The position numbers and the translations under genes are program-made. Below are positions 858 through 16,858 of a stretch of DNA of 16,858 nt, piece by piece. Under the pieces are notes generated by a model. It was not told the origin of the DNA. It saw nothing but the letters and a program-made list of their open reading frames with translations, and searched no databases. Numbering within the stretch: the stretch's first letter is position 1; each line of letters opens with the position of its first letter. The stretch is from assembly GCA_001940725.1 (NCBI GenBank), contig MDVR01000067.1, forward strand, positions 1 to 16,858, read 5' to 3'. Source of the DNA: Candidatus Heimdallarchaeota archaeon LC_2. Its GTDB lineage: Archaea; Asgardarchaeota; Heimdallarchaeia; Heimdallarchaeales; Kariarchaeaceae.

Positions 858-2711
858 ATGGTAAATTACAATGAGTTACTTTTGCGATACAAATCTAGAG
901 ATACAAAGGATAAAACAAACCAACGAGGAGTTGGTGAATTCATTAAAAGATTTGCTGGTTGGATTGTAAATGAAGAATTCAATGATTATGGGATGGATTT
1001 CGAAGTTAGAATATCTGTAGACATTGACAGAAAAATGCAGGATGTTCAACTTTTTACCTTTTATTCCCAATTGAAATCGACAGATGTTGTGTCTGAAGAA
1101 TCTAGTTATGATTTCAAGGTTTCAGATTTATTGTTTTTTGAAAATCAAGATCTACCTGTACTACTAGCTAGGTATTTTGATGGAAATTCAAAATTGTACT
1201 ATGTAATTGCTCAGGAGTATATTTGGGATATTCTTGATATTGAAGATTACTCATGGAGATCCCAAAGGACAAAGGTAGTTAAATTTGAAAAGGAGGTTAA
1301 TGACTTAGAGGAAATTCGAGAGGCATTAATGAGATGTCGTGCAAGGATCATTCGTATGCACCTTCACAGTTTAAAAATTGGGGAAGGTTTTTCATTTAGC
1401 TCTCCAAGCTCTCTTGATGCCCTAATCGAAAATAAGAAACGATATGAAAAGGAGGGTCGAGCCTTAAGTTTACACGAAGCACATTTGCGACGAAAAGATG
1501 GAGATTCAGAAGGTGAAATACAGATCTACAAGACACTGATAATTAACCCCGAAGATAGTTATGAGAAGTTATTGGCATATATTAATTTAGAGGAAATTTA
1601 TGTTAGGAAAAACAATGAATTAGAATTTAAGGATATAATTCAAGATGGCTTAATTCTAGCAAAGAACCTCAAGGAACATGGTCTCGGATATTTCCAATTA
1701 ATTTTGGCTTCCTGGTTAAATTATTCTAAATTACATAAGAAAATAGCTCAATCTCAAATAAGAAAGAAATCTATATTACTAGGGAACAGTGACCCATTGG
1801 CACTGTATTATGAATTTCAATTCTATGATGGGATACTTGAAACGATAAAAAATGTTAATGAAAAAATAAATTCTGCGTTGAATTATTTGTGGGATAATTC
1901 TGATCATATGTTTATTACAGGTTTATCAATTGTGATTAGGATTTTTGTCCAAAAAACATCAATTCTGTATCATCTTGACTCAAACGTAATTGAGGAAATT
2001 AAAATATCGGCAAAGATAGTTGTTGATATCCTTGAGTCATATTTAAAATATGATTTTGCTCCTGAGTTCAAAATTGATGTACTCTATGATTTAGGAATAT
2101 ACTATTATCACATTCTTGAATATGATCTAGCTATTGACAAATTAGAACGTGCCATAGAAATTGCAGAAGAGACGAAGAATCTTTCCTTCATGAAATATAC
2201 AACAGTCAAAAAACAAACTTTGATTGACAATCCTAATCCGTATGAAGCAATAGCCGAAAAGGCGAAATCGTCAAAGAAATTAGAAGAACTTTCAGGGGCA
2301 GAATACAAAGAAGACGTCGTTAATTTAATCACGCAACTAGATCTTATTGATTTGAGTGATGTAAATGATGAAATCACAAAGTCAGTACTCAACGCTATTG
2401 ATGACTTAGATCGTACTGAAATTTATCGACATTGTGAATTTCTTAGAATCAGACAAATTAGTACGAGTATCCTAGGACATCAAATACAACTTGAAACATT
2501 AGGACCGAAGGTTATTTGGTGTAAGCATGGTCAGGATTTTCCCATTAACATATCTCTTAAGCACGTATTCAGAATATTTAAATCGAGCAATTGTACAAAT
2601 TGTAGTCATCATACACCTAGAGATCAAAATTGGAAATATACTATAAATGATGCTCGGAATTTGGAAATTGAAACCGACTTTAAAAAATTCTGGGAAAATA
2701 TTCGGTTTTAG
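858..2711 (+). CDS. DUF4365-type nuclease-like protein with TPR region and C-terminal zinc-binding cluster
   Basis: Residues about 20-160 match the DUF4365 pattern: a G-V-G-E-F helix near residue 24, D-Y-G-M-D (Asp47), then Y-S-Q-L-K-S-T (Gln71, Lys73), and a later strand Y-Y-V-I-A. The spaced D and Q-x-K are the active-site layout of PD-(D/E)XK nucleases, so DNA cleavage is plausible (family knowledge). Residues about 200-450 are helical, with TPR-like pairs such as the segment L-G-I-Y-Y-Y-H-I-L-E-Y-D-L-A, suited to protein binding or sensing. Near the end C555, H557, C579 and C582, with H584 and H585 beside them, form a probable zinc site. The nuclease, helical repeat and zinc cluster suggest a single-gene effector with its own sensor. 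It is flanked by its own promoter and a hairpin, so it looks monocistronic. The ATG is supported by the TATA box upstream. Confidence 0.75.
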   Translation: MVNYNELLLRYKSRDTKDKTNQRGVGEFIKRFAGWIVNEEFNDYGMDFEVRISVDIDRKMQDVQLFTFYSQLKSTDVVSEESSYDFKVSDLLFFENQDLPVLLARYFDGNSKLYYVIAQEYIWDILDIEDYSWRSQRTKVVKFEKEVNDLEEIREALMRCRARIIRMHLHSLKIGEGFSFSSPSSLDALIENKKRYEKEGRALSLHEAHLRRKDGDSEGEIQIYKTLIINPEDSYEKLLAYINLEEIYVRKNNELEFKDIIQDGLILAKNLKEHGLGYFQLILASWLNYSKLHKKIAQSQIRKKSILLGNSDPLALYYEFQFYDGILETIKNVNEKINSALNYLWDNSDHMFITGLSIVIRIFVQKTSILYHLDSNVIEEIKISAKIVVDILESYLKYDFAPEFKIDVLYDLGIYYYHILEYDLAIDKLERAIEIAEETKNLSFMKYTTVKKQTLIDNPNPYEAIAEKAKSSKKLEELSGAEYKEDVVNLITQLDLIDLSDVNDEITKSVLNAIDDLDRTEIYRHCEFLRIRQISTSILGHQIQLETLGPKVIWCKHGQDFPINISLKHVFRIFKSSNCTNCSHHTPRDQNWKYTINDARNLEIETDFKKFWENIRF

Positions 2712-5651: not shown

Positions 5652-6000
5652 TATATTCATCCAGGATAAATTAAATGAAGGCTCCTATTGGATCAATGGG
5701 GGATCAATCAGATCAGATTTAAATTTATCTTGGCCTGATTTTATAGAGCTAATAAAAGAGAAAGAAAAACACAATATCTTAACTACATTTTGGTATGTTC
5801 TTTGTCCCAATTGTGGCTCTTACCAATTATTTGGTGCAGATGATAAAAATCAAGGATTTGTTCATTGTGATGATGATGATGAACAAATATCTATTGATGA
5901 GCATTCCCAAGTACAAATGAGAATTTATCCGAATTTAGAGAAATTTGATACTACAAACTTCAAAAAAAAACACAATCAAACATTCAATTTATGCATATAA
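5614..6000 (+). CDS. Small zinc-ribbon protein, probable winged-helix N-terminus
   Basis: The ATG at 5614 is preceded by AGGAG (5604-5608) with five bases between, inside the coding sequence of the gene before it. The 128-residue product has an N-terminal segment (about 5-58) whose helix pattern, with S-I-R-S-D-L-N-L-S-W-P-D-F, suits a winged helix, then C64-P-N-C67 and H84-C85, enough for one zinc ribbon. After that comes a D-rich loop (D-D-D-D-E). Zinc-ribbon plus winged-helix proteins commonly bind nucleic acid. The stop codon lies within the start of the following Mrr-like gene (ATGCATATAA), so the two are translationally coupled and may act as two chains of one enzyme. The exact family is unknown to me. 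Confidence 0.7.
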   Translation: MKMPNQELKRTFSIFIQDKLNEGSYWINGGSIRSDLNLSWPDFIELIKEKEKHNILTTFWYVLCPNCGSYQLFGADDKNQGFVHCDDDDEQISIDEHSQVQMRIYPNLEKFDTTNFKKKHNQTFNLCI

Positions 6001-6488
6001 AATCAATTTATAATAGATGGAGATCCTCTTCACCAAAAAACAATAAAGAGAAAGGAGACATTTTTGAAAACTTTGTTGGTGATCTGATTGATCTGATTCC
6101 TGGTTTAAATTTTGCTCGAAAAAATGTATTGACAGAAACCTCCGAAGTTGATTTACATTTCGACATTGGAAAAGAAATTGAAGAGCTATATCCTATAAAG
6201 GGTAAAGTAGCTGTTGTTGAATGCAAAGACGTGGATCGTAAGATAAATGTAAAGGATATTTCTCATATCGTCTGCGAACTTCTAGAAAGAAAAATTACTT
6301 TCGGAGGATTTGTTGCTAACAACTATTTCACAGAAAATGCAAAAAATAGAGTTTTTCATTTTTATAAAAGTCATAACCTAACAATTTTTCTTATTGACAA
6401 AGATGATCTAGAGAATATATACAATCAAACCAATAATATTGAGAAGCTTCTATATCACAGGATTATTGAGGAATTACAATTCCGCTAG
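5991..6488 (+). CDS. Mrr-like restriction endonuclease of the PD-(D/E)XK fold
   Basis: The 165-residue protein has the full pattern of Mrr-type nucleases: helix K-G-D-I-F-E-N-F (Glu26), then S-E-V-D (Asp54) ending the first core strand, and A-V-V-E-C-K-D (Glu77, Lys79) in the next, followed by a helix starting I-N-V-K-D-I. These acidic residues and the Lys form the metal-dependent DNA cleavage site in the family. It is a bare catalytic domain with no obvious DNA-recognition domain; that job probably falls to the two proteins encoded upstream. The ATG overlaps the previous stop by ten bases and has no Shine-Dalgarno site, so translation probably depends on the upstream gene. A hairpin terminator follows 25 bases after the stop. 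Confidence 0.8.
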   Translation: MHIKSIYNRWRSSSPKNNKEKGDIFENFVGDLIDLIPGLNFARKNVLTETSEVDLHFDIGKEIEELYPIKGKVAVVECKDVDRKINVKDISHIVCELLERKITFGGFVANNYFTENAKNRVFHFYKSHNLTIFLIDKDDLENIYNQTNNIEKLLYHRIIEELQFR

Positions 6489-7225: not shown

Positions 7226-7666
7226 ATGAAGAGAAAAGAAAAATGGGATTTTATTAAACAAATGCAATATAATGGGTATTCAGATGAAGAAATAGCAAGA
7301 ATGCTTAAGTATAAAAATGTTCAATCACTATGGAATTGGATAAGCAGGAACAAAGACAAATATGAAAACGAAGAGAATCCAGGTCTGTTAGACAAACTTA
7401 TTGGGATTCTTTCTGGACAAGACAAAGAAGGTTATTTGTTTGGTCTGTTTATGGGATACCTTTTCCGTAACGCATTGGACAACGGACTAGAAGCCCTTAA
7501 TAAGGAGACAATAACATTATATGAAACCATTTGGTTCTCTTTTTTGACAAAAGGGGGTCTCAAACGTGGATTGTTACAAGGTTTAGCTATCAAAGATATC
7601 CCAGCCTTAGGAAATGATCTTCAATCTTTCTACGAGGGTCTTCTAAGATATTACAATAACCAATAG
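7226..7666 (+). CDS. Helix-turn-helix protein with a helical C-terminal domain
   Basis: Residues 6-40 (W-D-F-I-K-Q-M-Q-Y-N-G-Y-S-D-E-E-I-A-R-M-L and on through the S-L-W-N-W-I recognition helix) fit a helix-turn-helix of the type found in transposase N-termini and small regulators. Residues about 75-140 are hydrophobic and helical (Y-L-F-G-L-F-M-G-Y-L-F), more like a dimerisation or ligand domain than a membrane anchor because charged residues interrupt it. The ATG has no Shine-Dalgarno site, suggesting a leaderless transcript, although the TATA box is not clear in this AT-rich spacer. Divergence from the 87-residue gene makes it a candidate regulator of that gene and of itself. Family not recognised. 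Confidence 0.65.
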   Translation: MKRKEKWDFIKQMQYNGYSDEEIARMLKYKNVQSLWNWISRNKDKYENEENPGLLDKLIGILSGQDKEGYLFGLFMGYLFRNALDNGLEALNKETITLYETIWFSFLTKGGLKRGLLQGLAIKDIPALGNDLQSFYEGLLRYYNNQ

Positions 7667-7786
7667 TTATGGAGACCCACTGATAATTTTTATGATTTCA
7701 CTTCAGAGAAATTCTTCATTATCACATGAATTAATTTTAGTCATAATAGCCATCTATATAATCTCTTGGATCGTATTTTTCTACAT

Positions 7787-8005
7787 TTACTGAGATTTCT
7801 CTTTTTCGGTTTTTGCTGGTATATCAATAAAGTGTTGTAGTACTTCAAGAGCAAATCCTAATTTCTTGATTTTCTTAACCAATTGATCCTTTTTATTTAG
7901 AATATTTAATGAGGATTTTATGATTAAACGAGAATGGAATTGAACTTCAAATCTTTGTAGGTTTAAAATATGGAGAATTATTGAAACTAAAATGGGAATG
8001 AGTTC
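7787..8005 (-). pseudogene. Decayed gene, C-terminal fragment, possibly transposase
   Basis: Reading right to left there are 72 open codons with protein-like composition (I-L-H-I-L-N-L-Q-R-F-E-V and later K-K-D-Q-L-V-K-K-I-K-K-L-G-F-A-L-E-V-L). The frame is closed upstream by TAA at 8006-8008 and has no start codon. In another frame the protein-like signal continues leftwards to a TAA near 7741 (V-E-K-Y-D-P-R-D-Y-I-D-G-Y-Y-D), indicating a frameshift. The helical tail ending in K-K-L-G resembles the C-terminus of some IS4-type archaeal transposases, but that is only an impression. Its 5' part overlaps the direct repeat at 7912-8050. Confidence 0.4.
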
Positions 8006-8050
8006 TTATGAAAAAGTGGGAATAAAGATGATTTTTATTCGAATTAATAG
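7912..8050 (+). repeat. Left copy of a degenerate ~138-bp direct repeat
   Basis: The segment matches 14309-14446 in the same orientation. The best block is TGGGAATGAGTTC followed by YTATGAAAAAGTGGGAATA (7993-8024 against 14389-14420), with one mismatch in 32. Either side there is weaker but collinear similarity: TTTTATGATTAA at the left, and TTTTTAT with GAATTAAT at the right. In minus-strand translation both copies share F-H-S-x-L-I-I-K, so both are probably remnants of the same coding element. The two copies bracket the four-gene minus-strand block. Confidence 0.6.
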
Positions 8051-8127
8051 TTATAGAATTTGAACTTTTAGAGAATATTTTGCATACTCTGGCCCATATT
8101 TCAAGGAAATTTATTTTTAACTAACTT

Positions 8128-9249
8128 TCACATTAACATTATTGTATTATCTTTTATTGTATAGTTGAGTACTGATATATGTTTGCTAATTATATTTAAC
8201 AAAAACCTCTCTGGGAACTTTTCAATAGGTAAATACTTCCAAATTTGATTTACAATTGTTTTCAGCTTTGTCGTTTTTTGATTTGATCTTTCGATAAGTA
8301 GCAATTCAAGTAAGATCTTTACTAAATCCACTGATTCTCTAAGATAAAAAATATTTAGTTGTGGTGAAATTATAAAATTTGGGATATTATTTTCATTAAG
8401 AAAGTCAAACAATTTAAGAAAATTTTTTTCGGGCTTAGCCATTCGAACCACGATAAATAAATTTGTAGGAAATTTACTGTAAAATTTGTTTATACGTTTT
8501 AAGCTTGAATTATAAGTAAAAAATGGGTAATTCATGAGTGAAATGAGTAACACACACCACTTTTTATTAAACTTTGTAAAATTTATCTCCATATAATTAG
8601 AATATGGACCCCTTCCATTTCTAACAATTGATATCTTAATTTGATGTTTTAAAAATAGCATATCATTTGAATTCTTCAACGATTCTCGAATAGATTTCAA
8701 ATTCTCATACCCAAAATCTTTACTATTTGAATCTTCATTCAATAAATAATACACGGATTCAAAATAAGTTTCAATAATAACTTGTTCTAATTCGGATTGC
8801 GAATAAAGATTATTTGATGGTTTAATCTTATCAAATAATTTCTTGATAATCGTAAAATAATTACTAGTTTCAATCAAACTACGTAATGCATCATCCTGCG
8901 TACCATGAGAAAATACATTATGAGTATATTCATTTCTGATTTCATCATTGTATGTACGCAAAAATTGAATAAGTTTTTCAGGGAGATAGTCATCAAGTAT
9001 TGTAATCACTCCTCCCATTGTAGTTTTTATGTTATTGCCTTTTATTTTTTCTAATAATAGCTTAACTGCACCTTCTACAACAAGATTACAGTGAAGTATT
9101 GTTGAGTAAAAAAATCTCTTATCATTAAACCCTTGATAAAAACAATTTACTGATTGTGTAAAATGATAATCAATTAAGAAAAACCATTTAGAGGAATCGG
9201 ATAGTTCATGCACACTCTTAATAATTGCAATCTGATTTCTCCAATCCAT
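8128..9249 (-). CDS. HEPN-domain RNase-like protein, third gene of the ATPase-TIR operon
   Basis: The N-terminal 145 residues are all helical. The helix Y-S-T-I-L-H-C-N-L-V-V-E-G-A-V-K-L-L-L is followed by I-R-N-E-Y-T-H (Arg105, His110), the R-x4-H active site of HEPN ribonucleases, with Asn after the Arg as in many active members. HEPN domains act as metal-independent RNases in toxins, abortive infection and CRISPR effectors (family knowledge). Residues about 190-330 form an alpha/beta domain (K-W-C-V-L-L-I-S-L, then N-L-F-I-V-V-R-M-A-K-P) that I cannot assign; it may be regulatory. The gene follows the TIR gene by 39 bases on the same strand. The ATG at 9249 has no clear Shine-Dalgarno site. 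A role as an RNA-cutting effector is inferred from the motif. Confidence 0.75.
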   Translation of the reverse strand: MDWRNQIAIIKSVHELSDSSKWFFLIDYHFTQSVNCFYQGFNDKRFFYSTILHCNLVVEGAVKLLLEKIKGNNIKTTMGGVITILDDYLPEKLIQFLRTYNDEIRNEYTHNVFSHGTQDDALRSLIETSNYFTIIKKLFDKIKPSNNLYSQSELEQVIIETYFESVYYLLNEDSNSKDFGYENLKSIRESLKNSNDMLFLKHQIKISIVRNGRGPYSNYMEINFTKFNKKWCVLLISLMNYPFFTYNSSLKRINKFYSKFPTNLFIVVRMAKPEKNFLKLFDFLNENNIPNFIISPQLNIFYLRESVDLVKILLELLLIERSNQKTTKLKTIVNQIWKYLPIEKFPERFLLNIISKHISVLNYTIKDNTIMLM

Positions 9250-9288
9250 AAATTAATCTTGTTATATCCATTATCAAGTATTTGTTTC

Positions 9289-10155
9289 TCATTCATCAAA
9301 ATTCTCAGATATTGCTTTTAATTCATCGCGTATAATCTGATATAATTCATCTCTATCTCCTCGATCCTTGTAGTCCTTCGTGAGTGTTTTACCATCCCTA
9401 GGTTGAAAATGTGTGCTACTTAACCAGTCATGTTCCTTCCATGAGCAGGCAGAGAGAATAATTGGAAATATCACCATTCCATCTTCTTTTCTTTGTTTGA
9501 TGAATTTATTAACCTCTTTGTCCATGATGTATTTAGAATTTAGAAACGGCTCACTAATCAAAAGTAATGCAATATGAGACCTTTTGATGTTGGATTGTAT
9601 TTTTTTATCCCAGATATCCCCCGTAACAATTTTTTTATCAATCCAAAACTCAAAATTATGATAGATTTCTAAACCCTTTAAATATGAAATTAAAGAAGTC
9701 TTATCTTCTAAGTCTACAAAAACAACATCCTCTGAGTTATGACTATGACTTACAAATACAACAGTTTTATTCTCCATTTTTTTCTCAATATTTCGAATTC
9801 CTTCCCTAATATAGTATTTCCCCATTGTCAAGATTGGTAATTTTGATTTATCAACGGATATGCAGTAATAATCTTGTGAACCTCTTGTGAGTTTTTTATA
9901 GTCCAAAATTGGCTGTGAATTTAATTTTTCCAATGCACCGTCCACGACTACTTTATTTCGAAACCCTTTACTTATTCCTAATAGTTTAATCTTACTATCA
10001 TCTGTAACTTTTACTCCAAAAATTATGTAACCCCCTTTAGTATTTGAAAGTGCTGAAATGCATATTCCCAATTTTTCTGGTCCAGGAGGTATTGCAAAAT
10101 ATATAAGCGTCTCATTTTCGGGAACACCAATTAAATCAATTATTTCATTCCTCAA
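9289..10155 (-). CDS. AlbA/Schlafen-like domain fused to a TIR domain
   Basis: Residues about 5-120 match AlbA_2/Schlafen-type domains: I-S-A-L-S-N-T-K-G-G-Y-I-I-F-G-V (33-48), then K-L-L-G-I, and a final Y-Y-I-R-E-G. The usual E-x-x-x-E-F-K segment is replaced by N-E-T-L-I-Y-F, so nuclease activity of this part is doubtful. Residues 131-282 are a TIR domain: T-V-V-F-V-S-H-S-H at the first strand, the box-2-like F-W-I-D-K-K-I-V-T-G-D, and S207-K-Y-I-M-D-K-E214, where Glu214 is in the place of the NADase catalytic Glu. TIR domains of immune systems hydrolyse NAD+ or make signalling nucleotides from it. The start is TTG at 10155, three bases after the ATPase stop, with GAGGT seven bases before it inside the ATPase gene, so the two are translationally coupled. 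Confidence 0.85.
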   Translation of the reverse strand: MRNEIIDLIGVPENETLIYFAIPPGPEKLGICISALSNTKGGYIIFGVKVTDDSKIKLLGISKGFRNKVVVDGALEKLNSQPILDYKKLTRGSQDYYCISVDKSKLPILTMGKYYIREGIRNIEKKMENKTVVFVSHSHNSEDVVFVDLEDKTSLISYLKGLEIYHNFEFWIDKKIVTGDIWDKKIQSNIKRSHIALLLISEPFLNSKYIMDKEVNKFIKQRKEDGMVIFPIILSACSWKEHDWLSSTHFQPRDGKTLTKDYKDRGDRDELYQIIRDELKAISENFDE

Positions 10156-10158
10156 AAT

Positions 10159-12717
10159 TCAAACCTCAAATTTCGTAATTCCATTTCTTCTTAATATTTC
10201 ACCCAACGTCAGCCGTTCTGGATCTTCTTCTCCATTTTGAACCCATAGTTCCATGTTAGGTTGATCTAATGCAGCGAGTTCCTCTTCAAAATGAATTATC
10301 ACTTTTCCAAAGTCAGAAGGACGTGCAATTAAATGGATCTCTTCATCATGTTTTTTTATAATAGCAACAGTTTTCGCAATTATTTTTTTATCTTCAATAT
10401 CATAAACCTTATTCTGTTCTGATAAATAATTTAGTATTCTCTCCATAGCTCGATCTAATATCCGTTCAACAAAACTATAATCAAAATTTCCAGTTGAAAC
10501 ATGTACAAATTTATTTTTGATATATTCTAATCCTAAAACAGCGTCTAACTCCTCTTTGTTTGTAACTCCAAATCTGATTAAAATTTCATTTGTTATTTCT
10601 TCCTTTTGATCTTGGGTGAGAATTCCATTACTATTAATGAGTCCTTCTAACTCATAAATATTACTGACACCATATTTTTCATAGAGTTGCTGCAAATCCT
10701 CAACTTCATCAATTATATGAGGATTTGAACGAATCCTATCAAATAATTCGACTGTTTTTGGAGTTATACCCCTTTCATATAATTGTATAAGTAACTCCTT
10801 CTGATCTTCAGGCATACTACTCATAATCAAGCTGTTTTCTAATTTCTCTATTTTAGGTAAATAATTTCTTGCATTTTTCCTATTTTCCTTGATCCAATCA
10901 ATTATTAGCAATACAGCATCTTTAGTCATGTTCTCAAGGCTGTCAAATGGAAATAACCTCCTTATCTCATCAGTTACATCATCAATTGTTTTTACATTTA
11001 ATTTTAAAAGTGAGGTATCAAAATATTTGTGTACTAAAATTTCCTTCCAATCATTTCCCAAAGCTTCTGTAATATTAACTAGAGCTTCATCGTTGATTGT
11101 ATCATGAAATAAATCTGTTATTTTCTTTAAATCTCCAATTTGATTTGGTACCATCCTGTAATTATGTAGGTGTGAGATACTATCTTGTAAAATAAATTTT
11201 ACTGTCTTATTTAACCAAAGGATTGCTTCTTCTTTCTGCAATTCCAAAACATCTTGTACTTTATTAAGATCCTGTAATTCGTTAATTTGGCTACACAGTT
11301 CAGAATAGTTTAGTTTATCCCATTCGTCCCACATTATTTTATACCAATTTTCAATATGATCTCGCTTAATTAAATAATCACTGGATATTTGCTCATAGAT
11401 TTTCCATATTTCTTCTCTGAGTATTTTTGAAGGCAGGGAAGGAAAATAAAAATCTTCAAATTTCTTTTTTTCATTTGTGTTATCATTTGGTTCTATAATC
11501 TTAGAGTCTGAGATAATCCTTCTTAACTTTTCGAGTATATTCCCAGAAATCCATTTTCTGTCTAATTCATCAGTTTTAAATTTATCAGGATCGGTCTGGC
11601 AAATATAAAATAAATTATGAAACTTATTGCTTTCAAGTTTAAAAAACAGCTCTTCGATCAATTCGATAGCTGATAGAAGTATCTCTTTATTTTCTATTAT
11701 ATCTGGTCTATCTAAACTTCCTAAAAAAATTTCATTTCTACTTTCGTTTGGATTTAAATTTGGACTATTTAATAAAAGAGGAAAAGGGAATTTTTCAGTG
11801 CCAATGAGTGGATAATTAACAAATAATTTTGGTATTTTATTCAAATTTTTCAGATAATATTCTTGATTAATTTTTTCCATTTCACAGGCAATTGACAATT
11901 TATCATTTCCCAATTTGGCAATGAGAACTTTGGAATATTCATTATTTTTTTTCTTCTTAATAACATGAATAAAATCATCTTCTAGCTCTTCGGAGAGAGA
12001 AAATGTAGATGTTATTCCAGTAGTATTGTTTATGATTTTAATTTCTTTAAAATGGGGTACAAACGATAAAACATAAGGGATTAATTTTGTTAATTCTTCA
12101 ATTCCATCCTCACATGTCTGTTTTTCCAAAGGGGAAAAGAGGGGGTATGTAAATCTCGTATTTAATTGGGCTAAATGAATTTTTTTTTCATATTGCTTAA
12201 ATGATTTTTTGAGTAAGTTATGAGTATTCATTAATTTTTTAATTAATTCTTTCTTTGTGTTAGCGTCCCGATCAATAAGACATTTGAATGAATATGAGGC
12301 TTGATCTTTATTTAATGTATAGCCTTGCACTTTGATTTTTTTGGATAATAAATTAGTCGTTAGAAATCCTGTTCCAAATTTTCCTGTTTTTTTAATTTGG
12401 CTTTCTTGAGTTTCATCATTTTCATCATCCTTAGAAGAAGTTTGAAAAACAATACTATTTAGATCCTTTTTCGAAAAAATGTCTCCTGAATGTTTAAAAA
12501 TCAAAGTATCTTTATTCACTGTAAATTCAGCATTTATCTTTCGATTTGACGTAAGAGTATCTTTTGCATTTTGAAGTAACTCCCAAACCCATCTTGTACT
12601 ATTTTTAGTTCGTAAATTTTCTAAATTATTCAGATTTGTTAACATATGACTCGCCATACCGGAATATAACGTCTCTTGAACCCCTTTAGAAAATTCCTCA
12701 GCAAAACCCATTTTCAA
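10159..12717 (-). CDS. HSP90/sacsin-type GHKL ATPase, first gene of the ATPase-TIR-HEPN operon
   Basis: The N-terminal 200 residues carry the GHKL ATP-binding motifs in the sacsin arrangement: R-W-V-W-E-L-L-Q-N-A-K-D (Glu46, Asn50, Asp53), then F-K-H-S-G-D-I-F-S (74-82), and T-G-K-F-G-T-G-F-L-T-T (111-121). The remaining 650 residues are mostly helical and not recognisable. Such proteins are ATP-driven conformational switches; in prokaryotes they occur in defence loci, often fused or next to effectors (family knowledge). Here the partners are TIR and HEPN proteins, so it is the likely sensor or activator. The TTG at 12717 is preceded by GGAGG with five bases between; ATG 12711, two codons on, is the alternative, with 11 bases spacing. 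The stop lies three bases before the TIR start. Confidence 0.85.
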   Translation of the reverse strand: MKMGFAEEFSKGVQETLYSGMASHMLTNLNNLENLRTKNSTRWVWELLQNAKDTLTSNRKINAEFTVNKDTLIFKHSGDIFSKKDLNSIVFQTSSKDDENDETQESQIKKTGKFGTGFLTTNLLSKKIKVQGYTLNKDQASYSFKCLIDRDANTKKELIKKLMNTHNLLKKSFKQYEKKIHLAQLNTRFTYPLFSPLEKQTCEDGIEELTKLIPYVLSFVPHFKEIKIINNTTGITSTFSLSEELEDDFIHVIKKKKNNEYSKVLIAKLGNDKLSIACEMEKINQEYYLKNLNKIPKLFVNYPLIGTEKFPFPLLLNSPNLNPNESRNEIFLGSLDRPDIIENKEILLSAIELIEELFFKLESNKFHNLFYICQTDPDKFKTDELDRKWISGNILEKLRRIISDSKIIEPNDNTNEKKKFEDFYFPSLPSKILREEIWKIYEQISSDYLIKRDHIENWYKIMWDEWDKLNYSELCSQINELQDLNKVQDVLELQKEEAILWLNKTVKFILQDSISHLHNYRMVPNQIGDLKKITDLFHDTINDEALVNITEALGNDWKEILVHKYFDTSLLKLNVKTIDDVTDEIRRLFPFDSLENMTKDAVLLIIDWIKENRKNARNYLPKIEKLENSLIMSSMPEDQKELLIQLYERGITPKTVELFDRIRSNPHIIDEVEDLQQLYEKYGVSNIYELEGLINSNGILTQDQKEEITNEILIRFGVTNKEELDAVLGLEYIKNKFVHVSTGNFDYSFVERILDRAMERILNYLSEQNKVYDIEDKKIIAKTVAIIKKHDEEIHLIARPSDFGKVIIHFEEELAALDQPNMELWVQNGEEDPERLTLGEILRRNGITKFEV

Positions 12718-12722
12718 TCACT

Positions 12723-12730
12723 CCTCCTTA
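12723..12730 (-). promoter_or_regulatory. Strong Shine-Dalgarno site of the ATPase gene
   Basis: TAAGGAGG on the minus strand precedes TTG 12717 by five bases and ATG 12711 by eleven. It shows a leadered mRNA and favours the TTG as start. A transcription start must lie upstream, but no clear TATA box is seen in the AT-rich spacer up to 13009. Confidence 0.55.
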
Positions 12731-12832
12731 AATAATAAGTAATAAAACTCGAAACTAAAGGCTTGTTGATTGCAACTGTAATGAAACCGAAAATCATTAA
12801 GAAACAAATGCAATAATAGTGTGTCTTTTATA

Positions 12833-12849
12833 AAAAATAGTTTATTTTT
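12833..12849. other. AT hairpin in the spacer between the HEPN gene and the ATPase operon
   Basis: AAAAATA, GTT, TATTTTT is a perfect 7-bp inverted repeat. The 292-base spacer 12718-13009 holds no gene. The hairpin could end transcription from the HEPN gene upstream (minus strand), which would make that gene a separate unit, but an all-AT stem may be chance. Confidence 0.25.
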
Positions 12850-13009
12850 GTAGTGTCATGTAAATTCACTTATGTTGAAATGATTAATTCTTAACATAAT
12901 ATCTTCCAGTGTGTGTATGCGATTATTTCATAAAAACTCTAAAATTGATCCAGAGAAGTTTTATATTTAACATTTAAACAGGTTCTTGCGAATGATTTAA
13001 TATAATTTT

Positions 13010-14035
13010 TCAATCAAATTTAAAAAACTCTAAATCTATATTATTCAACCTAGCAATATTATCTATTGCTTTTTCATATTTCTTCAAGTACCTCTGGATA
13101 TAATGGTTTTGAGTTCCCAAAATAATTGTCGTAATTTCAGTTGCAATTTCGTTTGTTATAGATATTTCTTTTGAATTGATATATTCTATTTTATTTTTTA
13201 GTAATTTATGATGATCATTTTCCATATCTTCCAGGAAATATTGAACATATCCATTTTGCCAATTTTTTGTATCCCATTTTTTAATAATATCTGAAGTCAT
13301 TTCTCCAATAAATTGAAAGTGTTCAAGATATTTATTTTCCAAGTAAGCTATATAATATTCTCGGACACTCGTTGAAGATATCAACCATCCACGTAATACA
13401 TGGGGAAAATCAATAAGGGAACTGATTTCATATTCAAATCGTTCTAATTTAATTTCTTTTATACCTCTGTGGATAATTTTATGTCTTTTTTCAATACAAG
13501 ACTCAATGTCTTGTATAAAAGTTGCCCAATCCTCTGATTTCAGCTTACTACTCTTTAAGAAATATTTTTTTAGCTCTGATAAAAATGAATGGTTCAGGCT
13601 TAATAAAGATCCAAATACTTTTTGTATACTATCTAAATTCTGAAAGTTTAAGAATTCTGCAAGAACAATTCCAATTGTTAAATTCGAACTTTCATAAAGA
13701 TATAAATCTTTTAATTGAAGAGAAACATTTGACTTTAGATTCTTGTAAGGAAACTGAAAATCATCAATAATACGTATAAATAGTTCTCTAAGTCTTATTT
13801 CAAAATAAGAAACCGCATTAACATATGCCATCCTCATAAAATGAGTTTTAACAAAAAGAGGTAGAGCATCCACATTTTTAATTAATAGGTCATCTTTAAT
13901 TTCTAATAAATCATAAATATCTTCTACATATGAGGTGTGATCATTTTGACTAAGGTTTTCAAAGATATGCTCGAATTTTCGTCTCATAATTAGTATTAAC
14001 TCAGAAATTGCAAAAACTTTATTGAATTTTTTCAA
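13010..14035 (-). CDS. HEPN-domain protein of the RiboL-PSP-HEPN type
   Basis: The decisive motif is E-K-R-H-K-I-I-H-R-G (Arg184, His189), an R-x4-H HEPN site in the form RHxxxHR typical of RiboL-PSP-HEPN and similar families. The upstream helices A-Y-V-N-A-V-S-Y-F-E-I-R-L-R-E-L-F (70-86) also fit: these families have a conserved S-x-F-E-x-x-L-R helix. Other defence proteins with this domain act as RNases or RNA-end sensors. The C-terminal 140 residues are helical without known motifs. The TTG at 14035 is the longest start, but ATG 13987 (residue 17) is equally possible; neither has a Shine-Dalgarno site. It lies 292 bases upstream of the ATPase operon on the same strand and inside the same repeat-bounded block, so it may be a fourth component or an independent toxin. 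Confidence 0.75.
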   Translation of the reverse strand: MKKFNKVFAISELILIMRRKFEHIFENLSQNDHTSYVEDIYDLLEIKDDLLIKNVDALPLFVKTHFMRMAYVNAVSYFEIRLRELFIRIIDDFQFPYKNLKSNVSLQLKDLYLYESSNLTIGIVLAEFLNFQNLDSIQKVFGSLLSLNHSFLSELKKYFLKSSKLKSEDWATFIQDIESCIEKRHKIIHRGIKEIKLERFEYEISSLIDFPHVLRGWLISSTSVREYYIAYLENKYLEHFQFIGEMTSDIIKKWDTKNWQNGYVQYFLEDMENDHHKLLKNKIEYINSKEISITNEIATEITTIILGTQNHYIQRYLKKYEKAIDNIARLNNIDLEFFKFD

Positions 14036-14222
14036 ATTTTTGTAAATTTAGCTTAACATAATAAACATAAAATTCGTATAAAAGTAATTCGGATTGCTAA
14101 GAATTCTACATTTTAATCAAACCTTCAACATAATATTAATCTCAATTCTTCACCATTTCGCCTAAAATTTGTTCAGTATCGAATCCAAATCGGAGTTGAA
14201 ATGAACATGGTCGATAGGGATA

Positions 14223-14233
14223 CCCCCCCCCCC
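14223..14233 (+). repeat. Run of eleven C residues
   Basis: An 11-base C tract in an AT-rich spacer, followed by TAAGGG. It is not within a credible gene; the minus-strand frame through it is the remnant described for the right repeat copy. Length variation by slippage or a sequencing error is likely here. Confidence 0.8.
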
Positions 14234-14308
14234 TAAGGGTCCAAATTTTGCATTTACAGTAGATTAATAGAGGGTTTCCCACGATAAAAAATTGTACTGT
14301 AGTTTGTG

Positions 14309-14446
14309 AGTCTTTTATGATTAAGTTGGAATGAAAAGAAGACGAAATTTTATGACAGTCCAAAATTCTGCATTTGATTTCACAAGTTTGGGAATGAGTT
14401 CCTATGAAAAAGTGGGAATAGTATCAGTTTTTATATGAATTAATGA
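14309..14446 (+). repeat. Right copy of the ~138-bp direct repeat
   Basis: This is the partner of 7912-8050, 6397 bases away. On the minus strand it reads S-H-F-F-I-G-T-H-S-Q and, further on, F-H-S-N-L-I-I-K, matching the F-H-S-R-L-I-I-K of the left copy. The open frame continues to about 14142 through the C tract but lacks convincing protein character there. The short motif GTCCAAA with TGCATTT occurs twice nearby (14239 and 14358), hinting at a further small duplication. Confidence 0.6.
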
Positions 14447-14561
14447 GATTAAAATTCCAAAATTATTCAGTATAATATCTCTCTAAATCATGAAAATTAA
14501 TACGATAAGCAATAAGAAGATTTGGAAAGATTGAAAGTCTAAAAACTGTAGCTTAATTACA

Positions 14562-15509
14562 GTGACAAAGAGAGATGGAGTTCCTAAAAATCAACATTAT
14601 ATGAATGTCGGTTATCTCCGTCGATTCTCAATTGATCCAAATTTAAAAGAACGGGAAAAATTAATGATCTATAGATTTGGAAAAGGGAATAATAATTTTA
14701 CTGAAGTAAAAATAGTATCACAGTGCAGCGACTTATTTTATTACTCCAGAATTAATGCAGTTAAGTTCGAGAAAACCCTAAAAATCCTTGAGGACAAATT
14801 TTCTGAAATACTCGACAAATTAGATGAAAATCAAGAATTATCAGGCGAAGATGAAGCAATATTATTGCGAGGATTAATTATTCAACATTTACGAACAACT
14901 GCCTACAGAACTGAAATAGAATATATTGAAGTAGAAAAAGGAGAGTACAGGGAATATGAGAATTCTGATCGAATAATAGATGATGCATTTAGGGTTTATA
15001 CGTTGACAAAAATGGTAGATGATTCAGGCAGACATTATTCAAACCTTTCATCTGCTGTCGAGTCTGGATTTAGATGGGGATCTCCAATAGATCCAAAGTG
15101 GAAATTTATCAACTTAATTTTAGATGTCAGCAAGATCTCTACTCACAGATTTGTCACATCTTGCAGACCGGTATTGTTATTTGAAACCCCAGATTCTGAA
15201 ATAGTCTTCTCCTTGATAATACTACCATATAGCCCTGAAAAAGTCTTGATTGCATATTATGAAGATTACCATGAATTGATAGAAGGGAAAGTCGGAAATA
15301 TTAGTGATATTGATTACATTAATTCTCATATTGTTATTCGAGCAGGTGATGCCATTCTCTCAGATATCAAAATCCAGAGAAATGAAAAAAATTCAGATGT
15401 ATTGGACAAGATAGGTAATAAATCCAATTTAGGATACTCAAATGAGGAAGGAATAAACCTCGAAATAACTACTTACAAGAATCAAATATCATTCCTCAAA
15501 AGTAAATGA
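14562..15509 (+). CDS. DUF4238-like protein
   Basis: The N-terminal N-Q-H-Y-M-N-V-G-Y-L-R-R-F (10-22) is the hallmark H-Y-x-P-x-x-Y-L-R-x-F pattern of DUF4238, with D-L-F-Y-Y-S about 40 residues later and the helix I-I-Q-H-L-R-T-T-A-Y-R near residues 105-116, as in that family. Members have no settled biochemical role; from memory they occur often in accessory and defence regions. The GTG at 14562 is used because the conserved block begins only seven residues after it and the next Met is residue 14, within the motif. The C-terminal part (beyond about residue 280) looks low in conservation, and its 116 terminal bases are repeated at 16479-16594. It is convergent with the nuclease-like gene, with 119 bases between the stops. 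Confidence 0.7.
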   Translation: MTKRDGVPKNQHYMNVGYLRRFSIDPNLKEREKLMIYRFGKGNNNFTEVKIVSQCSDLFYYSRINAVKFEKTLKILEDKFSEILDKLDENQELSGEDEAILLRGLIIQHLRTTAYRTEIEYIEVEKGEYREYENSDRIIDDAFRVYTLTKMVDDSGRHYSNLSSAVESGFRWGSPIDPKWKFINLILDVSKISTHRFVTSCRPVLLFETPDSEIVFSLIILPYSPEKVLIAYYEDYHELIEGKVGNISDIDYINSHIVIRAGDAILSDIKIQRNEKNSDVLDKIGNKSNLGYSNEEGINLEITTYKNQISFLKSK

Positions 15510-15773
15510 AGGAGTGTTCCATTTAAGACCGATTATAAATCAGGTGATTTACCCATATTACATTATATCTCAAAACTAAATGAAACTTAAAACTAGATAA
15601 AATGAAATTTCATTCATTTTCAAGTGAATTAATGTGGATGGGATCTCTCATTAACATGATTTATTCGTATTTGTTCTTCTCTTTCAGGATCACTGAAAAT
15701 AAAATACATACGGGGGTAGTTACTTAAATCATAAACTAACTTCTTTGAAGTTACAATTTTCGAGTTATCTAGT
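15394..15773 (+). repeat. 380-bp direct repeat, left copy
   Basis: Matches 16479-16858 at an offset of 1085 bases. I noticed one difference (CAGGTG near 15541, CAGATG near 16626). It contains the last 116 bases of the DUF4238-like gene, the spacer, and the last 145 bases of the convergent nuclease-like gene. The match continues to the window edge, so its true length is unknown. Confidence 0.95.
15601..15614. terminator. 14-bp perfect palindrome between convergent genes
   Basis: AATGAAA followed directly by TTTCATT lies between the stops of the convergent genes, about 90 bases after one and 15 after the other. It could help end transcription from either side, but it has no loop and is AT-rich. 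A second copy at 16686-16699 lies in the direct repeat. Confidence 0.25.
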
Positions 15774-16357
15774 TGCTCTTCAACTGTTCTCCCCTCACCT
15801 AATTCAATAACATCTGGACTTCCTTCTGGTGTTCCTAAAATACCATTAATTAAGAAATCTTGAAAAGACCTACATGAACTTGAAATATCTTTTAGTAATG
15901 GTGGATTTTTGAAATAGGAAAAATCAAGACTTGGCATTACTCGGATATAAGGAAATTGAGTCAGATATCTCATCGAACTATTCTGAAATTGTTTCCAATC
16001 CCTTGACATAAAAAAAAATAGATAACCAGCCCTCTCAGGAAAAGAATTGAGTGTTTCAAGTTGACCACCCGATTTCGTTAAGCGTATATATTCACTTCTT
16101 GACATATGAGAAGTTGGAGGACCAATTAATTTCTTAGCCTCAAATAAACCTGCTTTCAAGACGTTCTTCTCAGGTAGATCAATATATGTAATAATGACAA
16201 AATCTAAACCACCTTTATGTTGAACTGGAGTTGGAATATTTTTAACAATCATGGCGAAATTGAAACTCCTAGGGATAGAATTCAAATTAGATTCGATATT
16301 TGAGTTTTCTGTTTCAAATTTAGTGAACAACCTTGTAACTAATTCCGGTTCAGACAT
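15629..16357 (-). CDS. PD-(D/E)XK nuclease-like protein
   Basis: The 242-residue protein shows K-G-G-L-D-F-V-I-I-T (Asp52) and, 20 residues on, A-G-L-F-E-A-K-K (Glu73, Lys75), followed by S-G-G-Q-L-E-T-L (Gln99). The order D, E-x-K, Q at these distances is the active site of PD-(D/E)XK nucleases such as restriction enzymes. The N-terminal 40 residues are mixed, and the C-terminal 120 residues (several Y-F-x-F strands) are not recognised. The ATG at 16357 has GAGG directly before it, too close to act as a ribosome site; a TATA box about 30 bases upstream suggests leaderless or short-leader mRNA. Codons 169-182 (I-N-G-I-L-G-T-P-E-G-S-P-D-V) are also present, inverted, at 16443-16485. The convergent DUF4238-like gene may be its partner. 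Confidence 0.6.
   Translation of the reverse strand: MSEPELVTRLFTKFETENSNIESNLNSIPRSFNFAMIVKNIPTPVQHKGGLDFVIITYIDLPEKNVLKAGLFEAKKLIGPPTSHMSRSEYIRLTKSGGQLETLNSFPERAGYLFFFMSRDWKQFQNSSMRYLTQFPYIRVMPSLDFSYFKNPPLLKDISSSCRSFQDFLINGILGTPEGSPDVIELGEGRTVEEQLDNSKIVTSKKLVYDLSNYPRMYFIFSDPEREEQIRINHVNERSHPH
15810..15852 (+). repeat. 43-bp inverted repeat, original copy inside the nuclease-like gene
   Basis: The reverse complement of this segment is found exactly at 16443-16485. Here it encodes I-N-G-I-L-G-T-P-E-G-S-P-D-V on the minus strand in an intact frame, so this is the source copy. Confidence 0.9.
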
Positions 16358-16393: not shown

Positions 16394-16442
16394 AACAATT
16401 GTGGATAATTTTTGACATTTAGAATGACCTATCCAATGATCA

Positions 16443-16485
16443 TAATTAATGGTATTTTAGGAACACCAGAAGGAAGTCCAGATGT
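16443..16485 (+). repeat. 43-bp inverted copy joined to the second direct repeat
   Basis: This is an exact inverse of 15810-15852. Its last seven bases, CAGATGT, are also the first seven of the direct repeat, so the junction sits on a 7-base microhomology. An artificial plus-strand frame (about 16412-16594) runs through the junction and fuses I-N-G-I-L-G-T-P-E-G-S-P-D-V to the copied DUF4238 C-terminus; it is unlikely to be a real gene. Confidence 0.9.
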
Positions 16486-16858
16486 ATTGGACAAGATAGG
16501 TAATAAATCCAATTTAGGATACTCAAATGAGGAAGGAATAAACCTCGAAATAACTACTTACAAGAATCAAATATCATTCCTCAAAAGTAAATGAAGGAGT
16601 GTTCCATTTAAGACCGATTATAAATCAGATGATTTACCCATATTACATTATATCTCAAAACTAAATGAAACTTAAAACTAGATAAAATGAAATTTCATTC
16701 ATTTTCAAGTGAATTAATGTGGATGGGATCTCTCATTAACATGATTTATTCGTATTTGTTCTTCTCTTTCAGGATCACTGAAAATAAAATACATACGGGG
16801 GTAGTTACTTAAATCATAAACTAACTTCTTTGAAGTTACAATTTTCGAGTTATCTAGT
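16479..16858 (+). repeat. 380-bp direct repeat, right copy, cut by window end
   Basis: Nearly identical copy of 15394-15773. It holds a headless copy of the DUF4238 C-terminus (16479-16594, plus strand), the intergenic palindrome, and the copied 3' end of the nuclease-like gene. Confidence 0.95.
16714..16858 (-). pseudogene. Second copy of the nuclease-like gene 3' end, continuing past the window
   Basis: The minus-strand frame ends R-I-N-H-V-N-E-R-S-H-P-H, identical to the gene at 15629-16357. Only the last 47 codons plus the stop are in the window. Whether a full second gene, a fragment, or an artefact follows cannot be seen. Confidence 0.6.

What the first reader, a model, noticed from the sequence alone, without database searches (positions are those of the whole stretch)
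8128..12717. HSP90-like ATPase, AlbA-TIR and HEPN operon: candidate undescribed immune system
Seen: three same-strand genes with gaps of 3 and 39 bases, carrying GHKL motifs of sacsin type, a TIR domain with the catalytic-position Glu, and an R-x4-H HEPN site. Known: TIR proteins deplete NAD+, HEPN proteins cut RNA, GHKL ATPases switch conformation on ATP binding. Inferred: an infection sensor controlling two different lethal activities. I do not recall a named system with this exact gene set, but I cannot search.
Basis: partly seen in the sequence, partly recalled or inferred. Interest (0 to 1): 0.88.

Follow-up and report, generated by a model that had tools for sequence, protein, structure and literature searches.

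The report
Hsp90-like immune switch, swappable effectors
An Hsp90-like ATPase gene sits right before a small gene whose front half (an AlbA/Schlafen domain) stays the same across bacteria while its back half is swapped between different likely cell-killing enzymes; this suggests a modular antiviral switch and a possible explanation for the poorly understood Tiamat defence ATPases.

Summary
The three same-strand genes exist, with gaps of 3 and 39 bp. Two are well supported: a sacsin-type GHKL/S5 ATPase whose residues 7-587 match PADLOC's TmtA (Tiamat), and an AlbA_2-TIR protein with the expected Glu. The third gene's HEPN label rests on an R-x4-H motif that 22% of shuffles also contain; no homologue or usable fold was found, and it recurs in 0 of 80 related loci. 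What recurs is a two-gene module: in 60 of 80 loci the ATPase is directly followed by an AlbA_2 protein whose C-terminal half is HEPN-like (40), TIR (7), PD-(D/E)XK-like (7) or CAP12-type TIR (6). Trees show that effector types changed hands repeatedly. Of ATPases with a distinct C-terminal domain 59 of 68 have the partner, of those without it 2 of 13 (both split genes); some of the latter carry a NOV_C nuclease-like domain instead. Best reading: a Tiamat-like sensor ATPase licensing a swappable AlbA-docked effector, here a TIR. The three-gene system as stated is not supported; a four-gene unit between 158-bp direct repeats is possible. New variant of a known kind; function untested.

The parts
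10159..12717 (-). Sacsin/TmtA-type GHKL ATPase, 850-852 aa (TTG 12717 or ATG 12711): GHKL + S5 transducer + helical middle + C-terminal domain
10162..10509 (-). C-terminal ATPase domain (residues 735-850 from the ATG), the part whose presence goes with having an AlbA partner
   Evidence: C domain in 59 of 61 rows with partner, 9 of 20 without (Fisher p 8e-7; related rows are not independent)
12723..12729 (-). AAGGAGG, likely ribosome-binding site of the ATPase
   Evidence: read directly
9289..10155 (-). AlbA-TIR effector protein, 288 aa, TTG start, 3 bp after the ATPase stop
9790..10059 (-). SLFN_AlbA_2 match (residues 33-122); the E-x4-[EQ]-[YF]-[KR] motif of most HEPN-type partners is absent from this protein
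9397..9759 (-). TIR domain (residues 133-253) with Glu 214
8128..9249 (-). Orphan 373-aa protein with an RNEYTH motif (8937-8920): HEPN identity unproven
13010..14035 (-). Orphan 341-aa protein with RHKIIHRG motif (13486-13463), possible HEPN; same strand, 292 bp upstream of the ATPase; possibly part of the same unit
7903..8060 (+). Left copy of an imperfect ~158-bp direct repeat (32-nt core 7993-8024)
14300..14456 (+). Right copy of the direct repeat (core 14389-14420)

Best explanation
The core is a two-gene defence module. A Tiamat-like (sacsin/Hsp90-type GHKL-S5) ATPase is the infection sensor and switch; the adjacent AlbA_2 protein is its effector, docked through the AlbA domain, probably on the ATPase's C-terminal domain. 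In uninfected cells the ATPase holds the effector off; an unknown phage cue changes its ATP state, and the effector is released or assembled. Here the effector is a TIR that cleaves NAD+ (or makes an NAD-derived signal), stopping the infected cell. In relatives the same slot holds a HEPN-like RNase, a CAP12-type TIR or a nuclease-like domain. Shown: gene order, domains, recurrence, effector exchange. Inferred: docking, sensing, ATP control, antiphage role.
For: 60 of 80 ATPase loci have the AlbA partner as next gene; 58 of these 60 gaps lie between -11 and +37 bp. AlbA_2 in 60 of 60 partners scanned, window included, at E<=0.01 (L029 left out for unknown bases; L048 and L072 are below Pfam's own cut-off). 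C-terminal classes of the 61 (window included): HEPN-like 40, TIR 8, PD-(D/E)XK-like 7, CAP12-TIR 6 (Pfam). On the ATPase tree the labels need 15 changes (shuffled mean 36.1) and TIR at least 5 by well-supported branches. Five Bacteroidota AlbA-TIR genes have AlbA domains in one clade (support 100) but their ATPases are not one clade (AU p 8e-42): the effector gene moves between ATPases. ATPase C domain in 59 of 61 with partner, 9 of 20 without; L032, L074, L064 without it carry NOV_C in cis. Upstream neighbours include Lamassu LmuB and LmuC (5 of 88 each), type I restriction R (4), QatC, QatD, PtuA (2 each) (first 25 of 251 families shown). Precedent: VcSduA, a GHKL ATPase fused to a nuclease, lost antiphage activity when either site was changed (PMC12137116 passages).
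Against: No assay. Seven cyanobacterial ATPases have the C domain but no adjacent AlbA gene, so the domain is not sufficient for the partner; L046 and L061 also have a weak C-domain match and another kind of gene next. The window is a lone long branch (2.2) and its partner is only 24-27% identical to the other AlbA-TIRs. The HEPN call for partners rests on sub-threshold Pfam (9 of 60) plus the RH[LV][YF]xH motif (39 of 40); the nuclease-like call rests on motif reading, with one weak LmuA match (E 0.006). Search patterns favoured the ATPase N-terminal motifs and only the best 80 of 187 loci were kept, so 60 of 80 is not a census. No control set was run for the defence-gene neighbours.
Confidence: 0.62

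Rival explanations
1. One reading: one operon with one sensor and two or more killing proteins: ATPase, AlbA-TIR and the 373-aa HEPN candidate, perhaps with the 341-aa upstream RHKIIHRG protein as a fourth part.
For: All four genes are on one strand; 3- and 39-bp gaps; the four lie between 158-bp direct repeats (alignment score 47, best of 200 shuffles 21), as expected of one mobile unit; no terminator-like site was found in 7600-14600.
Against: No match to either orphan gene in the 80 ATPase loci or in the protein database; HEPN motif near chance level; 292-bp gap to the upstream gene; in the 7 other AlbA-TIR loci no same-strand ORF of 80 aa or more starts within 100 bp after the TIR gene. 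The terminator scan expects only 1.7 sites by chance, so its zero says little.
Confidence: 0.2
2. Toxin-antitoxin-chaperone logic: the Hsp90-like ATPase is a chaperone that keeps an otherwise toxic AlbA effector folded and silent, and phage shut-off of the host frees it.
For: Structural matches are led by Hsp90 and include sacsin; exchangeable partner genes fit a chaperone-client relation.
Against: ATPases occur without the partner: 20 of 80 loci, among them seven cyanobacterial ones that keep the C domain.
Confidence: 0.2
3. The TIR makes a signal, as in Thoeris ThsB, and the orphan 373-aa protein is its receptor-effector.
For: Best PADLOC match of the TIR is ThsB, 63.7 bits; a separate gene follows by 39 bp.
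Against: No ThsA-like SIR2, SLOG or Macro domain was found in the 13 window proteins scanned with Pfam; the 7 other AlbA-TIR loci have no such gene directly behind.
Confidence: 0.07
4. The ATPase (Tiamat) works alone and the AlbA gene is an unrelated or regulatory passenger.
For: Tiamat is, as I recall, a one-gene system; AlbA_2 also occurs in regulator-like proteins such as L033:11695-13071 (AlbA + HATPase_c_4).
Against: 60 of 80 linkage at near-zero spacing across Bacteroidota, Bacillota, Campylobacterota, Pseudomonadota, Acidobacteriota, Cyanobacteriota and Chlorobiota, with effector-type C-termini.
Confidence: 0.1

Closest known systems
Tiamat (TmtA), PADLOC PDLC03967
   Same: ATPase residues 7-587 match the model, 407.9 bits; four relatives of 849-1068 aa match it too.
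   Different: Tiamat is filed as one gene (recalled); here a conserved AlbA-effector gene follows, and the best stretch does not cover the ATPase's last 265 residues.
paraMORC4 with TIR (Iyer, Abhiman, Aravind 2008, PMC2292703; section 5 read)
   Same: GHKL-S5 ATPase with a TIR, which can be in a neighbouring gene.
   Different: Described as part of restriction-modification operons with helicase or methylase; the words AlbA, Schlafen and sacsin do not occur in the paper's text.
VcSduA (Shedu with GHKL domain; PMC12137116 passages)
   Same: GHKL ATPase thought to control a nuclease; both active sites needed against phage.
   Different: Effector fused in cis and a DUF4263 nuclease; no separate AlbA partner.
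PADLOC candidate PDC-S35
   Same: The CAP12-type partner of L038 matches it at 304 bits over residues 114-278.
   Different: That is the effector half of one class; the HEPN-type partners scanned (L003, L026) match no PADLOC model at E<=0.01.
Thoeris ThsB / TIR_2
   Same: TIR domain matches.
   Different: No ThsA found; TIR is fused to AlbA_2.
Schlafen / AlbA_2
   Same: Passes the Pfam cut-off.
   Different: The E-x4-[EQ]-[YF]-[KR] motif is absent in the window and all 20 other non-HEPN partners, so here it looks like an adaptor.

Membership tests
Tiamat (TmtA) | sacsin-like GHKL ATPase matching TmtA models | tested here: met
   PDLC03967 407.9 bits, E 3.1e-122
Tiamat (TmtA) | match over the full length of the model | tested here: inconclusive
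   best stretch 7-587 of 852 to 6-584 of 1063; two stretches reported, the second not shown
Tiamat (TmtA) | works as a single gene (recalled definition) | tested here: inconclusive
   genomic linkage of a partner gene in 60 of 80 loci speaks against it; function not tested
Tiamat (TmtA) | antiphage activity | not testable with these tools
   needs an assay
TIR | TIR_2 domain above curated cut-off | tested here: met
   41 bits vs 28
TIR | catalytic-position Glu | tested here: met
   E214 invariant in 8 of 8 aligned; its catalytic role is recalled
TIR | NAD+ cleavage | not testable with these tools
   needs an assay
Schlafen/AlbA_2 | domain above curated cut-off | tested here: met
   31.7 vs 25.3 bits
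Schlafen/AlbA_2 | nuclease acidic pair E-x4-E (role recalled) | tested here: not met
   window reads E-x4-I; E-x4-[EQ]-[YF]-[KR] in 37 of 40 HEPN-type partners, 0 of 21 others
HEPN (gene 8128-9249) | R-x4-6-H motif | tested here: inconclusive
   present once, but in 22% of shuffles for R-x4-H and 52% for R-x4-6-H
HEPN (gene 8128-9249) | all-helical HEPN fold or family match | tested here: inconclusive
   no Pfam match; single-sequence model pLDDT 42.6
Thoeris | ThsA receptor gene | tested here: not met
   no SIR2/SLOG-type match among 13 window proteins scanned; a gene beyond the contig cannot be excluded
Shedu type I with GHKL (VcSduA) | DUF4263 nuclease | tested here: not met
   no such match among the 13 window proteins scanned
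paraMORC4 | restriction-modification neighbours (methylase, SFII helicase) | tested here: not met
   none among 13 window proteins scanned
paraMORC4 | sequence membership of the GHKL domain | not tested
   no paraMORC4 reference was at hand

The most novel reading that the evidence does not exclude
Tiamat-type ATPases are general immune switches that work like an effector socket: an Hsp90/sacsin-type ATPase senses infection and passes the signal through its C-terminal domain to an AlbA/Schlafen fold used as a plug (catalytically dead in the TIR and nuclease-like classes), to which NADase, RNase or nuclease domains have been fitted and traded between lineages; some ATPases without the plug carry a NOV_C nuclease-like domain of their own.
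Probability: 0.4. Interest if true: 0.85.

Novelty: new variant of a known kind. Interest (0 to 1): 0.7.

Why it matters
A 2026 review lists Tiamat among systems of unknown mechanism (PMC12926258, one passage). A conserved, swappable effector gene beside the ATPase says what the output may be and makes it directly testable. It would also put Hsp90/sacsin-like ATPases beside other modular sensors with exchangeable effectors, and suggest that the Schlafen/AlbA fold can serve as a protein adaptor. In the listings of my ten paper searches (titles and starts of abstracts) and the passages I opened I saw no paper describing this pair; preprints outside PMC and most subscription journals are not held, so this is weak evidence of absence.

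Tried and rejected
Rejected or led nowhere: HEPN identity of 8128-9249 by homology (PHROGs only E 0.08; in 296 genomes of one phylum one match at E 4.7e-4, not significant after 296 searches), by profile or pair comparison and by fold. Identity of 13010-14035 with the partner HEPN domain: hhalign not significant; no relatives. Solved structures by sequence for the ATPase profile: only a chance-level match. ATPase relatives in IMG/VR (30 pattern matches, 0 confirmed), phages (none), plasmids (two cyanobacterial). Window in plasmids at DNA level: none. First single-sequence scan of genome contigs: 46 pattern matches, none confirmed; the alignment scan worked (208 matches, 187 confirmed, best 80 kept). 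Organism not identified: no genome held. RNA families: none. tRNA: none. Repeat core outside the window: 0 in IMG/VR; right repeat copy against phages none. Genome samples: matches in 14 of 395 (phylum of L001's genome), 3 of 398 (phylum of L053's) and 8 of 292 (phylum of L056's). AlbA lies beside the four strongest hits of the first sample (L081-L084), but L082 is L001 again and others may also repeat the 80, so I do not count them as new. The cyanobacterial full-length hits have no AlbA match in the roughly 1.5 kb held on either side; one C-domain fragment (L110) has.

Dropped before counts: one search classed only partners over 180 aa (97-aa L037_10 left out); L046, L061, L063, L074 have other downstream genes and count as without partner. 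ORFs under 80 aa were not considered. One search used 76 of 81 rows: five with fragments under 690 aa or unknown bases left out. One search scanned 60 of 61 partners. One search used 60 of 61. One search left out the window and all partnerless rows (56 of 76 kept). A4 held 88 of 124 neighbours (upstream ones only). ATPases split over two ORFs in L022, L036, L041, L047 were counted as pieces, not joined; L022 and L036 are the two 'partner without C domain' cells.
Full report

The third gene is not shown to be HEPN. Its RNEYTH motif is of a kind found in 22% of shuffled sequences (4.5% for the stricter form). It has no relatives found in the protein database, IMG/VR or plasmids, no Pfam, PADLOC or NCBIfam match, and the single-sequence model is unusable (pLDDT 42.6).

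The conserved unit. An alignment-driven scan of one genome per species gave 80 loci (187 confirmed, 80 kept). In 60 the next gene downstream is an AlbA_2 protein; 58 of the 60 gaps are between -11 and +37 bp; the exceptions are L023 (-85, probably a start chosen too far upstream) and L036 (+79, split ATPase). All 60 partners scanned, window included, match SLFN_AlbA_2 at E<=0.01, though L048 and L072 stay below Pfam's own cut-off. Behind AlbA the protein changes: clustering of the C-terminal part gave 40 HEPN-like, 7 TIR, 7 PD-(D/E)XK-like and 6 CAP12-type, with the window's TIR as a singleton. TIR_2 matches 8 of 60 and CAP12-TIR 6 of 60; HEPN_RiboL-PSP matches only 9 of 60, below its cut-off in the two whose scores I saw, but RH[LV][YF]xH is in 39 of 40 (the 40th is a truncated ORF). 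The nuclease-like class matches no nuclease family in Pfam and is read from a GE-D-IEAL pattern plus one weak LmuA match; it is the weakest call.

Effector exchange. On the ATPase tree (76 rows, quick method) the five labels need 15 changes (shuffled mean 36.1); TIR needs at least 5 by well-supported branches. The AlbA domains of five Bacteroidota AlbA-TIR partners group with support 100 (a long branch, L034, joins them), yet their ATPases as one clade are rejected (AU p 8.3e-42; the group was named after the tree was seen). So the AlbA-effector gene seems to move as a whole between ATPases, which implies a common socket. The AlbA E-x4-[EQ]-[YF]-[KR] motif is in 37 of 40 HEPN-type partners and 0 of 21 others, so in the TIR, CAP12 and nuclease-like classes the domain is more likely adaptor than enzyme.

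Where the socket may be. The ATPase's last ~115 residues are found in 59 of 61 rows with partner and 9 of 20 without (Fisher p 8e-7; related rows are not independent). Both exceptions with partner are ATPases split over two ORFs. L032, L074 and L064, which lack this domain and the partner, have NOV_C above its cut-off at the C-terminus; L021 has it just below (19.9 vs 22.1); L063 has none; the other partnerless rows without the domain were not scanned. Against a simple rule: seven cyanobacterial ATPases have the domain but no adjacent AlbA gene, and L046 and L061 have a weak match to it with a different gene next.

Setting. Of 88 upstream neighbours scanned, PADLOC models at E<=1e-10 include LmuB (5), LmuC (5), type I restriction R (4), QatC and QatD (2 each), PtuA (2) (the first 25 of 251 families are shown); no matched control set was run. 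In L052, L065, L066, L068 the gene before the ATPase ends 9-27 bp away; in L065 I scanned the three preceding genes: CTD6, MC2 and AAA_23 (the last just under its cut-off), an ABC-three-component, Lamassu-like set; the other three have genes of like size and order.

In the window, a 341-aa gene with RHKIIHRG lies upstream on the same strand, and the four genes sit between imperfect direct repeats (7903-8060, 14300-14456; 65% overall, core 31 of 32 identical; score 47 vs at most 21 in 200 shuffles). This may mark a mobile unit and is the best support for the orphan genes belonging to the system.

Prior art. GHKL + TIR pairing was reported in 2008 for paraMORC4 (PMC2292703, passages and section 5). 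VcSduA suggests that a GHKL ATPase can control a nuclease in phage defence (PMC12137116, passages). The 2013 HEPN survey (PMC3710099, passages) notes HEPN in animal sacsin, an Hsp90-like protein, a striking parallel to the ATPase/HEPN pairing here. Tiamat's mechanism is listed as unknown (PMC12926258, passage). The original Tiamat paper was not held under the DOI I tried, so its one-gene definition is recalled. Other papers seen in passages only: PMC8195603, PMC12839542, PMC12409356, PMC10482375, PMC13092281; PMC9519451 had none of the terms.

Verdict. Partly confirmed observation; interpretation partly supported; a new variant of a known kind, with the recurring two-gene, swappable-effector module as the real find.

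Noticed in passing
window 15384-15773 and 16469-16858: 390-bp direct duplication, 98.7% identical, reaching the contig end, with a 46-nt inverted repeat (15810-15855 / 16440-16485); tandem duplication or assembly artefact.
   Followed up: partly
window 858-2711: DUF4365 domain followed by weak TPR matches, 617 aa; likely another defence gene.
   Followed up: no
window 5991-6488: Mrr_cat restriction-endonuclease-like protein, 165 aa.
   Followed up: no
window 14562-15509: DUF4238 protein beside the operon, divergent; weak PADLOC DUF4238-Pers match.
   Followed up: no
L052, L065, L066, L068: A gene set that in L065 is CTD6 protein, MC2 and AAA_23 (ABC-3C, Lamassu-like) lies 9-27 bp before the ATPase + AlbA-nuclease-like pair, perhaps a joint system.
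   Followed up: partly
L012, L016, L017, L020, L042 upstream genes: A 346-356-aa gene ends 8-10 bp before the ATPase; in L016 it is NA37-like, and 5 of 88 neighbours match NA37.
   Followed up: no
L046, L061: ATPase relatives followed by what looks, by my reading of the sequence, like an ABC-type ATPase gene instead of an AlbA gene.
   Followed up: no
L033:11695-13071: AlbA_2 + HATPase_c_4 regulator-like protein 89 bp after the AlbA-HEPN gene.
   Followed up: no
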